From Rhizomucor pusillus (lineage: Eukaryota > Mucoromycota > Mucoromycetes > Mucorales > Lichtheimiaceae): a stretch of 64,000 nucleotides of DNA. Shown one piece after another: positions 19,484 to 30,374 of this stretch (its first letter is position 1; each line of letters opens with the position of its first letter). Where the stretch lies: positions 1 through 64,000 of the forward strand of contig FWWN02000336.1 in the NCBI GenBank assembly GCA_900175165.2. The letters are read 5' to 3'. The position numbers and the translations under genes were made by a program. Below the pieces are notes generated by a model. The model saw only the letters and a list, made by a program, of their open reading frames with translations. It was not told the origin of the DNA and ran no database searches.

Positions 19484-22393
19484 ATGGCTGCACTAGCTTT
19501 GAAGCGAAGGACACCTTCGCTTGGTGCTTTGCCCCCTACACCCCCTCTCAACGTGATCGAAACACCAGTACCTTCGGCTTCCATAACCAATAAGCCAGCT
19601 GTTCAAGGCGCGTCACTGTATCACACGTGCCGTTCCGTACTTGACAGACTCGCTCTCGTTGACGGCTTGACAGAGTTTCTGGATCCGGAAGCGTTGCCGC
19701 TTGTGCCGCCGACCACGCCCATCTTGTCGCCATCCTCATCTACCTCCTCATCAGAGCCTACCACGCCAACCTTTGGATGTGATCCGCTCTCTAAATTATG
19801 GTCCATTTGTCGACAAGGTTCGCCGTTGTGTATCTTATTCAACGCCTTGTGTCCCGATAATCCATTAAAAGTCGAGCGCGATCCAAAACTTACCCAAGTC
19901 AACACTTGCAAAGCAAGCGTCTACCATTTCATTGTCGCTTGTCGCAAGCAGTTGGAATTTCCAGAGGATGACGTGTTCACCATCACTGACCTTTACCAGG
20001 ATGATACCAATGGTTTTGTCAAGGTATAAACTCTAATAATAGCTCACGGACAAGTGTCGTTTTTGTTGGCTCATTATGTTTGACCAACACTTTTTTATCA
20101 TTCACTTTTTTAGGTTGTCAACACCATTAACAAAATTTTGCAGTTGATGGAGACCAAGGGCATGATTTCCGTGCGATCATCCAATCGAAACTCTGACCCA
20201 AATGCACCCAAGGACACACGCAGCAAAGTTGTGATGGAGCTGCTAGAGACTGAGCGCAAATATGTTCAGGATATGGAAATTCTTCAGGTAAGCAAAGCAA
20301 AAACAAGTTTGGTAATCTGTCCGCGTCCAGCTAAATTACATTGTTTTCGTCACGACAGAATTATATGCGTGAGCTGCAGAATCAAAAAATTTTGTCTCCA
20401 GACACGATCCATTATTTGTTTGGCAATCTCAACACTCTGGTCGATTTCCAGCGTCGGTTCTTGATACAACTCGAGGACATGGCGGAAAAGTCGGCTCAAG
20501 AGCAGCGCATCGGCCTGCTATTCGTTCAGATGGAAGAGGCGTTTGCTGTCTACGAGCCTTACTGCGCCAACTATTACTCCGCCCAGGACTTGGTGGTGCA
20601 GGAAGCTCCTAAACTGCAGAAACTTGCCGACATCCTGAATCCTACCTACGAATTGCCTTCAATGCTTATCAAACCTGTTCAGCGCATCTGCAAATACCCG
20701 CTCCTGATGAACGAATTGATCAAAAGTACCGATAAGGAATGGCCCCATTTTGCAGAAATGGAACAAGGTCTCGAAGCTATCAAGCGTGTTGCGGAGAAAG
20801 TCAATGAGACTCAGCGGAAACACGAGAACGACCAGGCCATGGAGGACCTGAAACGCCGTATTGTGCTCGAAAATGTAAGATCACCCATGACTTGTAAATA
20901 TGCATCACATGGTTCCCGCTGACAGCCTGTAGGGTCGATCCATCGACACGTATGGAAGTCTCTTGTTGCATGACAAGCTTATTGTAGGCAGCAGCGATTT
21001 CGAGCGCGATCTTTGCGTCATTCTGTTTGATAAAGTGCTCTTGCTCTGCAAAGATGCATCCGCCAAGAACAAACTCACCAAATCAAACACCATCTCGATC
21101 AATAAGAAGAAACGACGTGACAGTTTGCGTGAAAAAGGACGCATTTTCGTCAACAGCATCATCGGCGTTCACAATCGCTCTCAGAACGGCTCGTGGATAC
21201 TCGCTATCGATTGGAGAAACCCAGATGTTGAAGTATTCACGCTGAAACTTCGAAACGAGGAACAACTCAAACTTTGGGAGACAACCTTGAATAAAGTCAA
21301 GGCCCAGAACAAGATTCACGTGCCCAATACCCATCTTTACTCTATGCCGAGCCCTACAAACTCGCAAATGCCGTCTCATCTCCACAGCGACTCTGCCTCG
21401 TTCATTGACGATGCAGACGACGACGAGGAAGACGATGACTTTGGGCAGGAAGACGAGGAGGAAATCGCGCCAACGCGTTCGCGAAGCAACTCGATATCGG
21501 CTCAGTTATTCAACACACTGGCAGGGCGTCCCAAGTTGCATCGCGACAACAGCGTCGATGCAGCTAACTGGAAAGCCCAGCGTTCATTTATGCCTGGCAT
21601 GAATTTGTCGCCTCTGCCACGGCCTAGCCACAGCACGTCAACTACGGCATACGATCACGGTATGCTACCTGCGTCGCCGCCGCCTTCTCATCCTTCATCG
21701 CCTACCAGCTCGTCCCGTATATCGTCTGGCAGCAGCACTTCCCGTCGTCGCCAAGAAACATCGAGTGACATTGCATACAAGTTCATGGCAACCGATATAC
21801 CGACGCCGAAAGAAGAATATCCTCTCCCACCACCTGTGGGACGCAGCCAGTCGCAGTCCACAACAGCTACGCAGATGGGCTTCGTCCAACATACCCGAAT
21901 GAGATCGCAGAGCAGTCCGAATATCCACAAGGCATCTGCAGCCCAAGCTGCTGCTGCCGCCGCCGCTGCTGCCGCTGCACCTGTACCCCAGATACCCTTC
22001 AACTCTCGTACAGTTTATCACCGCGAACCAGCCGTCCGCAATGCTTCATCTACGCCGCGATTATCTGATATGGTGACTACCTCTCTGCAATCGCAGATTG
22101 AGAGAGTCGTCTCGGCTGTACCCATGTCGCCTGGTGAGCTCAAGGTCAAGCTCAACTATGACAGTGGTGTGTACGCCATCAAAGTCGCGCAAGAAGTCAC
22201 TTTTGCCGAGTTGATGGAAAAGGTCGAACGCAAACTTGGTATTATTGCCAACCTCAATCCAAACGAGACGCTCCGCCTGAAATACCAGGATGAAGACGGC
22301 GATCTTATCACTATCAACTCGGACGACGACGTCCAAATGGCATTCGAAGGTCGAACATCAGGCCACGTTGTCAACATTTTTGTCAATGTATAA
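19484..22393 (+). CDS. CDC24: Cdc24-like RhoGEF for Cdc42
   Basis: 896 aa from exons 19484-20023, 20114-20287, 20359-20874 and 20933-22393. Domains in order: a CH-like N-terminal region (PLSKLWSICRQGSPLCILFN, LYQDDTNGFVKVVNTINKIL), a DH domain starting ELLETERKYVQDMEILQNY and including the hallmark LIKPVQRICKYPLLMNELI, a PH domain (KLIVGSSDFERDLCVILFDKV ... WILAIDWRNP), a long Ser/Pro-rich disordered linker with acidic and poly-Ala tracts, and a C-terminal PB1 domain (VKLNYDSG ... YQDEDGDLITINSDDDVQMA, the OPCA motif). This is the Cdc24/Scd1 layout: the DH-PH unit loads GTP on Cdc42 and the PB1 domain binds the Bem1-type scaffold at sites of polar growth. The linker is the likely phosphoregulated part. 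Confidence 0.95.
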
Positions 22394-26283: not shown

Positions 26284-27463
26284 ATGTCACCAAAATTTCT
26301 CTTAGAACCAGCATCAAAGGCTATAGCGGATAAAGATGAAGATTTTAATAGATCCATCCCAATTGACGTCTTAAGACGAGAACACGAAGCTTTATATGAA
26401 AACTTCCACTCAGAATTTGCACAGTCCTTGCCTAAAGTCAAAGTTAAGGATATTGCTATCACAAGAGCAAATGGTGCACGTTTGGATTGACCATCACTCG
26501 TCCACTTGATACGAAATCAGAGAAGCTACCTCCAATTGTTTACTGGTATTGTAAAGCCGCAAAGTTGTGGAGTGATTTATATGATATGAGTGCTTATCAT
26601 CAAATGCAATCCTGTAGTCACGGTGGTGGATGGGTGTTTGGAAGCAAACTTACACACCGCAGAATAGTCTATGAAGTATAAATCATCGTTCGCATCAGAG
26701 TGGTAATGGCCACTTTCAGAGTACTCGATGTTTACACTGTGTCAATTTATATATAGCTGACAGTGTAATCGAGAGCAGCGGTCGTCTTCGTGAACTAATC
26801 TCTAAGTCCTGAGGCAAGATTCCCGGTGGCCAGTGAGGAGTGCTACGATACAGTGGTCTGGGTTGCCAACGAGGAAAATGCACAGTCAATCAGTGTTGAT
26901 CCTCGCAAAATTGTCATTGCAGGCGATTCTGCCGGGGGATACTTGGCCGCGACCGCCTCCAGTACGTTTGCCATTATTCAGGATTTGATATTGCGCGCCT
27001 CTCAATACTAACATTTATATTTAGTCCTTGCAAAACAGCGTGGTCTAGCTGCTATCAATGGGCAGGCTTTGATTTATCCGATTACTGATTTAAAGTTTGA
27101 TACCGATTCCTACAAAGAGTTTGCTAATGGATACGATTTGACACCTGAAGCCATGGAATGGTTCTGGGATCATTATCTCCCTGATAAGGCAGCTCGCACC
27201 AATATCTTGGCATCGCCGCTCCAAGCATCAACCAAAGACTTGGAAGGCTTGCCGCGTGCTCTTGTGATCACTGCGGAGGCTGATATTTTGCGAGACAAGG
27301 CTGAAGCTTACGCCAGAAAGCTTCTGGCGGCTGGAAACGATATCGTCGCTACAAGATATCTTGGCATTATCCACGGGATCCAAACTCATGGTCGTCTACT
27401 ACGGATACTATAGTTAGCCAGATTGCTAATTGGATGAAGCAGACTTGGCAGCTTAAAGCTTAA
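26284..27463 (+). pseudogene. Decayed HSL-type alpha/beta-hydrolase (esterase)
   Basis: The parent family is the hormone-sensitive-lipase-like esterases. Recognisable parts remain: the oxyanion motif HGGGWVFGS (after an intron whose 5' end is at about 26546), the nucleophile elbow GDSAGGYLAA, the acid residue region VITAEADILRDKAEAY, and the His region YLGIIHG. The frame is broken four times. A 1-nt deletion lies near 26484 (GARLD before TITRPLDT). Two in-frame TAA codons lie in the exon after the third intron acceptor (about 26767-26800, within V-stop-SRAAVVFVN-stop-SLSPEARF). Another frameshift lies near 27390, just after the catalytic His; downstream of it the expected ending SQIANWMKQTWQLKA is still readable to the TAA at 27461. 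Alternative splicing does not remove the stops without losing conserved sequence. Confidence 0.8.
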
Positions 27464-27626
27464 GATTTAACAATGAAAAAGACGAAAATAGCCTTTTAAG
27501 CGAGGATAAAAATGATCTGCAATTTTGGGCCAGGCCAAAACGGGCAAGGTTTCGTTTCATAGTGATTTTTGATGTTCAAGGTCTCGCCCACTTTTGTCTC
27601 ACGAAGCCTTCCTTTCCGTTTCCACC

Positions 27627-28502
27627 ATGGCGGATCCATACGCTCATCAGTACCCTCCACCAGCACCGGTTGCGCCTGATCCTTACGCACAGCATCATTA
27701 CCCACCGTCGCCATTCGCAAACTCACAACAACAACAAGCATACGACCCGAGCTACCTCGCTCATCAAGGCCAGCAAGTACCAGCAACTCCAGAAAACGCT
27801 GTGCCTTTGCAGGAACGCCATGGGCAGCCAAAAAGCGCAGCTACGGGGTACAATGATCCGCAAGCTATATCGCTGTCGGACTATGTAGAAGCGGAAAGAC
27901 AGGAACATCTTGCAAAAGTAAATCAGCATCATCAACATCAGCAATATGGTTATTCAGATTATGGATATTACCAAGATAATCCTAACTATAACCACGATGC
28001 GGCGTACCACACACCGTATACACAGTATCACGATGAGCCGGACTACAGCGTTCCGGCAACAGCTCCCATGGTTCAGCAGGATGCATCAAAGAATCACCGC
28101 CAACGACCGCCAGCTGCTGGACCTACGCTTGCGCCAGAGCACGAGGCTGATTCCTACAAACCCAAGCCCTATCAACGGCCATTGCGCGATGACGGCTGTA
28201 GCTGCTGTTGTTACAACCCAGCCATGACATGTTGCTCCTGCTTCTGCATGATCCTCAGTTTAGCATTCTTGGCAGCCGGCATTGCCTTAATTATCTCTGC
28301 TTCCGTGATCCAAGGCAAATGCCAGAATAGCTGCGACGGTTTACCTGATGAAATATCGTCATCCACACCGTGTGATACTATCTGCGGCAAAGTAGTACAC
28401 GATGCTCTCTTTTGGTCTGGCGTTGGAATAACTGCAATCTCGGGCATCGCTGTTATCTGGCGATTATTCATGTGGATCTGCGCAGGGGCTTCTAGACGTT
28501 AA
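27627..28502 (+). CDS. Pro/Gln/Tyr-rich membrane protein with Cys-rich juxtamembrane motif
   Basis: Intronless, 291 aa; start chosen at the ATG in CCACCATGG. About 200 N-terminal residues are disordered (MADPYAHQYPPPAPVAPD, many HQ and YY dipeptides). Then come a Cys cluster CSCCCYNPAMTCCSCFC, a transmembrane helix (ILSLAFLAAGIALIISAS), a short loop with five Cys (GKCQNSCDG ... CDTIC), and a second hydrophobic helix (ALFWSGVGITAISGIAVIW). The Cys cluster beside the membrane suggests palmitoylation. No family is recognised; a fungal plasma-membrane or cell-wall-associated role is only a guess. Confidence 0.7.
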   Translation: MADPYAHQYPPPAPVAPDPYAQHHYPPSPFANSQQQQAYDPSYLAHQGQQVPATPENAVPLQERHGQPKSAATGYNDPQAISLSDYVEAERQEHLAKVNQHHQHQQYGYSDYGYYQDNPNYNHDAAYHTPYTQYHDEPDYSVPATAPMVQQDASKNHRQRPPAAGPTLAPEHEADSYKPKPYQRPLRDDGCSCCCYNPAMTCCSCFCMILSLAFLAAGIALIISASVIQGKCQNSCDGLPDEISSSTPCDTICGKVVHDALFWSGVGITAISGIAVIWRLFMWICAGASRR

Positions 28503-28700: not shown

Positions 28701-30374
28701 ATGAGATTGCGTGTTCGTCATCCTAAAGGAACAATAACGTTGGACAGTATACAGCCGGACGACACTGTTCTCGCTTTACGAGAGCAGATTGCTAATACCA
28801 TAGGAGAGCACTTTGCAAGGATCCAAGGTCATGACAACTTGCGATTAGGAAACATTTTGCAAAGCAAACTGATACTCTCGTTGACAATTAGTTGCCGGAG
28901 GATATCCTCCGAAACCTTTCAAAGACGATACTCAAACAGTTGAAGCCGTAGGAATAAGAAACGGCGATGCCTTGAATGCTACAGTTGTATCCGAGCCGAC
29001 AAACACTCCTGCTACTGCCACCGTGACAACTGCAACAACGCAGAAGTTGCCGAAAAATCTGGATGATGATGAAACAGTGACTGTAGCAGGCGGTGCACTT
29101 GTATTGCGGGTAAAACTCAAACGATGCAATATAGAGTAGCCACTCGATATGCTGATGCTTCCTTTACAACCGTTCTTAGACTATGGAAGACGACAATTCA
29201 TGCCTGTTCCGTTCTCTCGGCAAGTCGATTTTTTGCACGTAGAGACAAAATAAACCCATTACTAACATTTTCTGTCTAGGGTATCATTAACTTATTTCTA
29301 CATGTTCTGGATGAGTAGAGCATCTGCTAACTCTATTATTTTTGCAGATATGTGCTTGAAAAAGATACAGAGAACTTTTCAAAACTGCGTAAAGGTAATC
29401 ACATCCAGAATGGCCGAGGTTTTACAAGCAATTATATAACATCCTGATTAGTGGTGGCCACATGCATTGCAAATGATCCGGTGACGTATTCAGACGTTAC
29501 ATTGGGACAAGACAGAGGTAGGCGGAAACCGATGTATAATACTTTGTAATCTAATCACATGTGTTGCAGACAAATACATACAATGGATTCAGCAAGATTC
29601 TTCTTGGGGAGGTGCCATAGGTGAGGACGAGGACACGTGGTCCAATGTTTACTATGGTACTTATCTGTTCTATAGAGCTCGCTATCCTATCAGCATATTA
29701 CGGCGTTGAAATCGACAGCATCGACGTTCAAACAGGGCGAATAGACAAATTTGGTGAATATTCACAAGTAAGCAAATGGCCTCTGTCTTTATTCTTACTT
29801 TATATTTTAAGGAGAAGGAAGATATCCCGAGCGCGTACTGGTTGTTTACAGCGGCATCCGTGAGTTAGATGGAACTCAAGAGTAAAAATGTATCCAATTT
29901 CTAAATCTAGAACTAGATTACGATGCATTAGGTCTTTCTCCTGCGGCCGGTTTTCCTCCAGCTTTTGATCAGACCCGATTCAACACTAGCGATAATGAGA
30001 TTCTAATAGCTGCACAAGAATTGGTTGAGAAATTGCGCCGAGTATGTTCAGAACTGTGTGGAAAAATTATCGGAGAAATACTTACATATACACGTTGCCC
30101 ACAGAAACACAAGTATACCGATGTGGCTAACTTCACGCTAAAGTGCGACCAATGCCAAGCAGGTTTGGTCGGCGAAAAAGGTAATTTGCATAAGTATCCT
30201 GGTCATGGTAGCAAATATTCAAGCGCATCTTTATTATTTGTGAACTGTCTAATGCTAGATGCCCGCGCACATGCTGCTGTAAGTAAACACGAATATTTGA
30301 ATGGAAAACATACAGTGCTAAGTGTAATTGGAGTCTAGTCAACAGGTCATACGCAGTTTGTTGAATACCAATAA
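28701..30374 (+). CDS. OTU1: OTU1/YOD1 deubiquitinase, 13 exons including a 1-nt exon
   Basis: 310 aa. Exons: 28701-28827, 28892-29109, 29180-29219, 29280, 29348-29394, 29452-29517, 29570-29620, 29676-29753, 29812-29859, 29917-30041, 30105-30180, 30259-30278, 30339-30374; the sum is 933 nt. The N-terminal UBX-like domain (VAGGYPPKPFKDDTQTVEAV) binds p97/Cdc48 in this family. The OTU catalytic core shows MEDDNSCLFRSLGYVL with the D-x-x-C active site, WGGAIELAILSAYY, and the catalytic His in VVYSGIHYDAL. A C-terminal C2H2 finger follows (CDQCQ ... ARAHAASTGH). The enzyme trims ubiquitin chains on ERAD substrates with Cdc48. The third intron starts with GC, and a single G at 29280, bounded by TCTAG and GTATCA, is needed to keep LGYVL in frame. 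Confidence 0.92.

What the first reader, a model, noticed from the sequence alone, without database searches (positions are those of the whole stretch)
29219..29348. A 1-nt coding exon in the OTU1 deubiquitinase gene
Exon 3 ends CTC G before a GCAAGT donor; exon 5 begins A TAT GTG CTT. Joined directly they are out of frame by one base. Between them lies TCTGTCTAG|G|GTATCA: one G flanked by a good acceptor and a donor. Splicing it in gives LGYVLEKD, the conserved OTU core. Both resulting introns (60 and 67 nt) have the local typical length and each has its own branch-like site (TACTAAC before TCTAG; CTAAC before TTTGCAG). All 13 exons then sum to 933 nt with no stop. One-nucleotide exons are extremely rare in any organism. 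A single intron with a non-canonical GG|CA junction is the main alternative.
Basis: partly seen in the sequence, partly recalled or inferred. Interest (0 to 1): 0.9.

Follow-up and report, generated by a model that had tools for sequence, protein, structure and literature searches.

The report
One-nucleotide exon in fungal OTU1 gene
A gene of the mould Rhizomucor pusillus for a conserved protein-recycling enzyme appears to contain an exon just one letter long, and public gene models of a number of related fungi break at the same place, which suggests the oddity is old and often misannotated.

Summary
The window is Rhizomucor pusillus (Mucorales). Its OTU1 gene needs exactly one extra base between exons 3 and 5. 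The best-scoring in-frame path, and the only one listed that gives the conserved gap-free protein, uses G29280 as a 1-nt exon between a GC-AG intron (60 nt) and a GT-AG intron (67 nt).

The NCBI model avoids it with a weak donor, GTCGAT: a 124-nt intron and an extra lysine in the catalytic-cysteine helix. In a self-trained set of 119 introns that donor scores below all 119; 3 of 119 are as long. A gene finder offered 1-nt exons anywhere in 254 kb chose only this one at one setting, none at a stricter, two at a looser. As good a site arose in 7 of 20,000 shuffles.

New here: annotated OTU1 proteins of Mucorales (16 of 55, R. pusillus included) and Glomeromycotina (5 of 6, three found with a biased query) have indels at this junction, against 0 of 93 in other groups. 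Seven lack exactly the 16 residues of exons 4+5.

One-nt exons are known (plant APC11 and VPS55, Fusarium CYP621A); this is a new member, possibly old. RNA evidence and relatives' DNA were out of reach.

The parts
28701..30374 (+). OTU1 (ubiquitin thioesterase) coding region, 13 exons, 933 nt including stop, 310 aa
   Evidence: Exon assembly; Pfam OTU1_UBXL, OTU and zf-C2H2_OTU1_C all above their gathering cut-offs; OTU1 chains are the best PDB matches; the 7 matches of P0001 listed in the own genome all lie in this gene
29180..29219 (+). Exon 3, 40 nt: encodes TMEDDNSCLFRSL plus the first base of the Gly129 codon; holds the catalytic Cys
   Evidence: Sequence; DNSCLF invariant in two alignments of selected sequences
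29220..29279 (+). Intron 3, 60 nt, GC-AG, donor TCG|GCAAGT, acceptor TTTTCTGTCTAG
   Evidence: Length inside the local range (104 of 119 introns are 50-75 nt); donor at the 84th percentile leaving aside the GC; 3 of 119 sample introns use G|GCAAGT; acceptor at the 44th percentile
29260..29266 (+). Branch-site match TACTAAC of intron 3
   Evidence: 88th percentile of best branch scores in 119 introns
29280..29280 (+). Exon 4: the single nucleotide G, middle base of the Gly129 codon (G|G|A)
   Evidence: Frame requirement; best of the enumerated in-frame paths; chosen by the gene finder at two of three settings; shuffle null
29281..29347 (+). Intron 4, 67 nt, GT-AG, donor G|GTATCA (weak, 4th-7th percentile), acceptor TTATTTTTGCAG
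   Evidence: the acceptor is at the 93rd percentile
29325..29331 (+). Branch-site match TGCTAAC of intron 4
   Evidence: 97.5th percentile of best branch scores in 119 introns
29348..29394 (+). Exon 5, 47 nt: last base of the Gly129 codon, then YVLEKDTENFSKLRK and one base; exons 4+5 together are 48 nt = 16 codons
   Evidence: the exact 16-residue block missing from 7 relatives' protein models
29224..29347 (+). Rival 124-nt intron implied by the NCBI model P0001 (donor CAA|GTCGAT), which inserts Lys130
   Evidence: Protein comparison; donor score below all 119 sample introns, 3 of 119 introns as long

Best explanation
G29280 is a constitutive single-nucleotide coding exon of OTU1. The spliceosome recognises two ordinary short introns by intron definition. 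Intron 3 is GC-AG, 60 nt, with TACTAAC; intron 4 is GT-AG, 67 nt, with TGCTAAC. They are probably removed one after the other, because the acceptor of intron 3 and the donor of intron 4 are one base apart and cannot both be occupied at once. The G completes the codon G|G|A for a glycine in the helix that starts at the catalytic cysteine. Without it the frame is lost, and retention of either intron brings an early stop. Shown here: the frame need, complete signals on both sides, lengths, chance level, and conservation of the residue and of the protein length. Inferred: that the RNA is spliced so, the order of removal, and that the same exon exists in other Mucorales and in Glomeromycotina.
For: 1) Frame: with G29280 the ORF is 933 nt and open; without it the protein breaks at residue 129. 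2) Protein length: the result aligns without a gap to OTU1 of other fungi and to human OTU1 across this motif. The Gly is invariant in the 17 intact relatives that I chose for alignment. 3) Signals: of 9 in-frame two-intron paths this one scores +3.59 and the next -3.48. The best single-intron paths score -1.8 (GTAGAG, +6 residues), -3.21, -4.14 and -4.22 (NCBI). 4) Local statistics: 119 introns, median 61 nt; the NCBI donor is below all 119; 3 of 119 are 124 nt or longer. 5) A gene finder given 1-nt exons at no extra cost on both strands of 254 kb chose one, G29280, at intron penalty 7, and regained the start of exon 5 with it. 6) Chance: 7 of 20,000 shuffles and 10 of 40,000 genomic bodies do as well. 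7) Relatives: an indel end within 2 residues of this junction in 16 of 55 Mucorales (15 of 54 without R. pusillus) and 5 of 6 Glomeromycotina models; 0 of 24 Mortierellomycotina and 0 of 69 others. At the ten other intron positions Mucorales show 1 to 8. From the first two searches alone: 16 of 52, 2 of 3, 0 of 24, 0 of 61. Seven models from seven species lack exactly residues 129-144, i.e. exons 4+5. 8) The same kind of site, AG|G|GT giving the middle base of a Gly codon, is reported with RNA-seq reads in Fusarium CYP621A.
Against: No RNA evidence was available. The public model does not use it. The intron 4 donor GTATCA is weak: 4.2nd percentile in spliced context, 6.7th in genomic context. 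The gene finder chose no 1-nt exon at penalty 9, where it did not predict OTU1 at all. At penalty 6 it chose two, the second probably spurious. At penalties 7 and 6 it fused OTU1 with a neighbour and misplaced several of its exons. The intron set was found with the same scoring model, so percentiles of weak donors are biased low. 33 of 55 Mucorales models are intact at the motif, so the odd junction is either absent or correctly handled there. Three of the six Glomeromycotina models came only from a search whose query itself lacks the 16 residues, which favours models with the same gap. No DNA of any relative could be read.
Confidence: 0.88

Rival explanations
1. One 124-nt GT-AG intron (29224-29347, donor CAA|GTCGAT), as in the NCBI model P0001. 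The protein carries an extra Lys130: SLGKYVLEKD.
For: In frame, no stop, canonical dinucleotides, and it is the public annotation, identical to the 1-nt-exon protein in the other 310 residues. Exon 1 of the same gene also ends at a GTC donor, GTCATG.
Against: The donor scores below all 119 sample introns and the length is reached by 3 of 119. Path score -4.22 against +3.59. The lysine lies in the predicted helix 123-133 that starts at the catalytic Cys. Of 93 homologs outside Mucorales and Glomeromycotina none has an indel end at this place. It leaves a full TACTAAC...TCTAG|G|GTAT arrangement unexplained.
Confidence: 0.06
2. One intron 29221-29347 with a non-canonical GG|CA donor, giving the same protein as the 1-nt exon.
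For: Gives LGYVLEKD with one intron, and would not differ from the 1-nt exon in the mature mRNA.
Against: No CA-AG intron class is known to me (recall; not searched). The intron would be 127 nt. In Mucor flavus, Phascolomyces, Cokeromyces and Parasitella (P0043) the broken models read N, K, K, N straight after the glycine, as read-through of a canonical G|GTAA donor after the first G would give (inference).
Confidence: 0.03
3. A missing or wrong base in the assembly: the gene really has one ordinary intron here.
For: Single-base errors do occur, and the reads were not available.
Against: The NCBI protein comes from a 1.86-Mb contig, whereas the window's contig is 66,304 nt, so it is from another assembly. 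Its protein is identical in all 310 shared residues, and its extra Lys fits the same GGCAA|A letters at the join. The same junction breaks models in other species.
Confidence: 0.02
4. A pseudogene, or an exon joined by another mechanism (frameshifting, a different tiny exon).
For: Only that the public model differs.
Against: The other exons are intact and in frame with all three OTU1 domains present. Other internal exons of 24 or 29 nt score far worse and insert residues.
Confidence: 0.01

Closest known systems
Fusarium CYP621A single-nucleotide exon (PMC12940212; abstract and parts 1-2 of 3 of the text read)
   Same: Fungal gene; one G as AG|G|GT; middle base of a Gly codon in a conserved motif; an apparent intron more than twice the usual length (139 nt, median 56, in the paper); public models wrong at the junction
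   Different: Backed by RNA-seq reads; another gene and phylum; reported there as the first for a fungal gene. Here a GC-AG intron precedes it and no RNA was seen
Plant APC11 and VPS55 1-nt exons (PMC4674806: abstract, Results and Discussion read; PMC8831610: passages read)
   Same: 1-nt exon needed for the correct protein; conserved over a large clade; missing from reference annotations
   Different: Plants; proven by cDNA, minigenes or RNA-seq; the Arabidopsis APC11 base is A and lies about 330 nt into its intron region
Spliceosomal twin introns, stwintrons (starts of abstracts in the listing; one passage of PMC5639578)
   Same: Two consecutive excisions in place of one long apparent intron in fungi
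   Different: In a stwintron one intron splits a splice signal of the other. Here both introns have complete signals, and joining 29219 to 29348 without the G is out of frame
Placozoan mitochondrial cox1 1-bp exon (PMC5436844, search listing only)
   Same: Exon of one base pair
   Different: Mitochondrial, so presumably not spliceosomal

Membership tests
Single-nucleotide spliceosomal exon | One coding nucleotide between an acceptor AG and a donor GT | tested here: met
   TCTAG|G|GTATCA at 29275-29286
Single-nucleotide spliceosomal exon | The nucleotide is required for the reading frame and a conserved residue | tested here: met
   Frame lost without it; Gly invariant in the 17 intact relatives chosen for alignment
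Single-nucleotide spliceosomal exon | Both flanking introns have their own donor, branch site and acceptor and a normal length | tested here: met
   60 and 67 nt against a median of 61; branch scores at the 88th and 97.5th percentiles; the intron 4 donor is weak, 4th-7th percentile
Single-nucleotide spliceosomal exon | Presence of the nucleotide in mature transcripts | not testable with these tools
Single-nucleotide spliceosomal exon | Conservation at the same position in related genes | tested here: inconclusive
   Protein models break at this junction in part of the Mucorales and Glomeromycotina, but no relative's DNA could be read
Stwintron (spliceosomal twin intron) | An internal intron interrupts a donor, branch or acceptor of the external intron, leaving no exon base between | tested here: not met
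   Joining 29219 to 29348 is out of frame; both introns are complete without each other
OTU1/YOD1 deubiquitinase | N-terminal UBX-like domain, OTU domain, C-terminal C2H2 zinc finger | tested here: met
   PF21403, PF02338 and PF24560, all above gathering score
OTU1/YOD1 deubiquitinase | Catalytic Asp, Cys and His (roles recalled) | tested here: met
   D120, C123 and H227 (P0001 numbering) invariant in 32 aligned sequences

The most novel reading that the evidence does not exclude
The OTU1 1-nt exon was already present in the common ancestor of Mucoromycotina and Glomeromycotina and is still spliced in many of their species, among them arbuscular mycorrhizal fungi and agents of mucormycosis. 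It would be one of the oldest known exons of this size, and it trips many of the gene models that contain it. (Lowered from 0.55 to 0.50 on checking, because three of the six Glomeromycotina models were found with a query that itself lacks the 16 residues.)
Probability: 0.5. Interest if true: 0.75.

Novelty: new member of a known kind. Interest (0 to 1): 0.62.

Why it matters
It would be the second fungal gene with a 1-nt exon that my searches turned up, after the Fusarium report of 2026, and the first outside ascomycetes. The pattern of broken public models suggests it is old and shared by two subphyla, so selection would have kept an exon of the smallest possible size in a conserved enzyme. 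That makes the lower limit of exon recognition, and the order in which two introns one base apart are removed, testable in fungi with short introns. It also gives a practical rule: gene models that break at the same junction across many species can flag exons too small for predictors.

Tried and rejected
Relatives' DNA: scans of viral contigs and prokaryote genome contigs found no relative, so conservation rests on proteins alone.

First version of the gene finder: no penalty per intron, over 1,700 introns in 20 'genes', discarded. One search added the penalty.

Stwintron reading: rejected because joining exon 3 to exon 5 at the given ends is out of frame.

Other internal exons (24 or 29 nt) and other donors: enumerated and outscored.

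A second candidate 1-nt exon at 20933 (loosest penalty only): not pursued; it is not found at the two stricter settings.

Structure: the NCBI protein was modelled (mean pLDDT 88.8). It places Lys130 inside helix 123-133; the ten-residue blocks around it have pLDDT 88 and 80 against 95-97 in the next three blocks. This is suggestive only, and the version without Lys was not folded.

Counts and dropped rows: each protein search lists at most 120 hits (of 2066, 2888 and 1227). Mucorales were picked by genus from those listings: 55 proteins, 46 species labels. Genus-to-group assignment is recalled, except for the look-ups of Rhizomucor pusillus, Paraglomus and Mucorales. By pattern, 33 of 55 Mucorales are intact. 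By indel position, 16 of 55 are hit at the junction, P0001 among them; the six that fail the pattern but have no indel end there are P0025, P0043, P0061, P0141, P0144 and P0152. P0141 and P0144 start beyond the junction. P0138 fails the pattern by a substitution. P0137 passes the pattern but carries an insertion. Natural indels also occur elsewhere: among the 69 'other' proteins, 9 at the 8|9 position and 6 at 1|2.

Bias: the third search used P0039, which has the 16-residue gap. Among the proteins of interest it brought in P0141, P0142, P0144, P0145, P0152 and P0153. Without it the counts are 16 of 52 Mucorales, 2 of 3 Glomeromycotina, 0 of 24 and 0 of 61.

Searches for prior reports. In their listings I saw no 1-nt exon in OTU1, Mucorales or Glomeromycotina; the hits were not opened.

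Full report
WHAT WAS CHECKED. The finding claims that the OTU1 gene at 28701-30374 contains an exon of a single nucleotide. The sequence is as described. Joining 13 exons, the fourth being G29280 alone, gives 933 nt, an open frame and 310 residues. Leaving the G out breaks the protein after SL at residue 128 and brings stops. The protein is OTU1: it carries the OTU1 UBX-like domain, the OTU domain and the OTU1 C-terminal zinc finger, and the nearest solved structures by sequence are OTU1 chains.

ORIGIN. The best database match is a Rhizomucor pusillus protein, P0001, from a 1.86-Mb contig. The genome held for this window has 24.45 Mb in 353 contigs, and the 7 matches of P0001 listed in it all lie in this gene. 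The window's contig is 66,304 nt, so P0001 comes from another assembly.

THE PUBLIC MODEL. P0001 is identical to the 1-nt-exon product except for one inserted lysine, SLGKYVLEKD. It is the real rival. An AlphaFold model of P0001 puts this lysine (residue 130) within the helix 123-133 that begins at the catalytic cysteine.

LOCAL INTRON STATISTICS. I trained a small gene finder on 254 kb of this genome (window plus 19 stretches of 10 kb). Of four of its window proteins tested, three match Pfam families along most of their length or with several domains (isocitrate dehydrogenase; a Ras-type GTPase with EF hands; a 2OG oxygenase), and the fourth is an alpha/beta hydrolase apparently fused to its neighbour. 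Of 184 introns, 119 have coding support on both sides and are needed for the frame. Their median length is 61 nt; 104 of 119 are 50-75 nt and 3 of 119 are 124 nt or longer. The donor GTCGAT scores below all 119. GCAAGT occurs as a donor in 3 of 119 (the program allowed GC only as G|GCAAG or G|GCGAG). The branch sites of introns 3 and 4 lie at the 88th and 97.5th percentiles and the acceptors at the 44th and 93rd. The donor of intron 4, GTATCA, is weak (4th to 7th percentile). Because the same scoring model picked these introns, weak donors are under-sampled; the percentiles are guides.

COMPARING PATHS. Among the in-frame two-intron paths between exons 3 and 5 (9 found), the 1-nt exon scores +3.59 and the next -3.48. 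The best single-intron paths score -1.8 (donor GTAGAG, six extra residues), -3.21 and -4.14 (late acceptors that delete part of exon 5) and -4.22 (NCBI); the best 8 were printed. In these listings only the 1-nt path gives a protein without insertion or deletion. Given the fixed outer donor and acceptor, as good an AG|G|GT site arises in 7 of 20,000 dinucleotide shuffles and in 10 of 40,000 substitutions of the intron body by genomic sequence. When 1-nt exons were allowed anywhere at no extra cost, the gene finder chose none at intron penalty 9 (where it did not predict OTU1 at all), one at 7 (G29280) and two at 6 (G29280 and 20933). At penalties 7 and 6 it fused OTU1 with a neighbour and misplaced some other exons; the choice at 29280 is the relevant result.

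RELATIVES. Three protein searches (at most 120 hits listed each) gave 154 proteins. A number of annotated OTU1 proteins of other Mucorales are damaged where the 1-nt exon would lie. Measured by alignment to the model, an indel end lies within two residues of this junction in 16 of 55 Mucorales (15 of 54 without R. pusillus itself) and 5 of 6 Glomeromycotina, but 0 of 24 Mortierellomycotina and 0 of 69 others. At the other ten intron positions Mucorales show between 1 and 8 such proteins; the 8 are at the next junction and include five far ends of the same deletion. The 69 others have indels too, up to 9 at another position, but none here. Seven proteins of seven species lack exactly residues 129-144: Syncephalastrum racemosum, Circinella minor, Mucor atramentarius, M. 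saturninus, Parasitella parasitica, Funneliformis caledonium and Paraglomus occultum. That is 48 nt, exons 4 plus 5 together, the result to expect when a program cannot see a 1-nt exon and must drop the 47-nt exon to keep the frame. Others insert residues after the glycine: Mucor flavus NLYLYILSLV, Phascolomyces KLKYNCFYI, Cokeromyces KLC, M. hiemalis YEGA, Rhizophagus irregularis P0137 VVRILEDD. In M. bainieri two partial models with consecutive locus tags (MBANPS3_000908 and _000909) cover the gene, and the N-terminal one lacks the DNSCLF block before SYVLRR. The K or N after Gly in M. flavus, Phascolomyces, Cokeromyces and Parasitella (P0043) is what reading into a G|GTAA donor would give, so the upstream intron probably starts at the same base there (inference). 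R. irregularis has both an intact model (P0121) and a broken one (P0137), so an intact model does not show that the odd junction is absent.

LIMITS OF THIS. 33 of 55 Mucorales models are intact, including those of Absidia, Cunninghamella, Lichtheimia and most Rhizopus entries. They may have lost the arrangement or may have been annotated correctly. The third search used a query (P0039) that itself lacks the 16 residues, which favours models with the same gap; it supplied P0142, P0145 and P0153. Counting only the first two searches gives 16 of 52 Mucorales, 2 of 3 Glomeromycotina (both insertions), 0 of 24 and 0 of 61. No relative's DNA could be read. The deep-conservation claim is therefore an inference from annotation failures.

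MECHANISM. Each flanking intron has its own donor, branch site and acceptor, so both can be defined as introns. One base separates acceptor and donor, so both cannot be engaged at once and removal should be stepwise, as suggested for Arabidopsis APC11 (PMC4674806, Discussion). Keeping intron 4 gives a stop right after LGYH, keeping intron 3 gives a stop after LGKSIFCT, and skipping the G shifts the frame.

WHAT IS KNOWN. Single-nucleotide exons are established in plant APC11 and VPS55 (PMC8831610, passages) and reported with reads in Fusarium CYP621A. The Fusarium case is strikingly similar: AG|G|GT, middle base of a Gly codon in a conserved motif, and an apparent intron of more than twice the usual length. 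The listings of further searches showed none in OTU1, Mucorales or Glomeromycotina. The arrangement is not a stwintron, since neither intron splits a signal of the other and the outer join alone is out of frame.

VERDICT. It is a new member of a known, very rare kind. Its likely age and its repeated misannotation are the interesting part, and both can be tested with reads and genomes.

Noticed in passing
Window 29224-29347; NCBI protein P0001 (VTP01DRAFT_7466): The public R. pusillus OTU1 protein probably carries one spurious lysine (residue 130) from a misplaced donor.
   Followed up: yes
Proteins P0127, P0137, P0142, P0145, P0153 (Glomeromycotina): OTU1 models of arbuscular mycorrhizal fungi break at the same junction as those of Mucorales, two of them by the identical 16-residue deletion.
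   Followed up: partly
Window 51925 and 22073 (+), and L011 near base 2709 of the strand read: GC-AG introns with donor G|GCAAGT in other predicted genes: 3 of 119 supported introns in 254 kb, so GC donors with this consensus look regular here.
   Followed up: partly
Window 20933 (+): At the loosest penalty the gene finder proposed a second 1-nt exon (GCCTGTAG|G|GTCGAT) in another predicted gene; probably spurious.
   Followed up: no
Window 26706-28502 (+): The gene finder fused an Abhydrolase_3 gene with a proline/glutamine-rich, cysteine-rich membrane-type protein; probably two neighbouring genes.
   Followed up: no
Protein P0061 (G6F42_007544): Labelled Rhizopus arrhizus but 99% identical to Mucor atramentarius OTU1 over the shared part; the strain or contig label is doubtful.
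   Followed up: no
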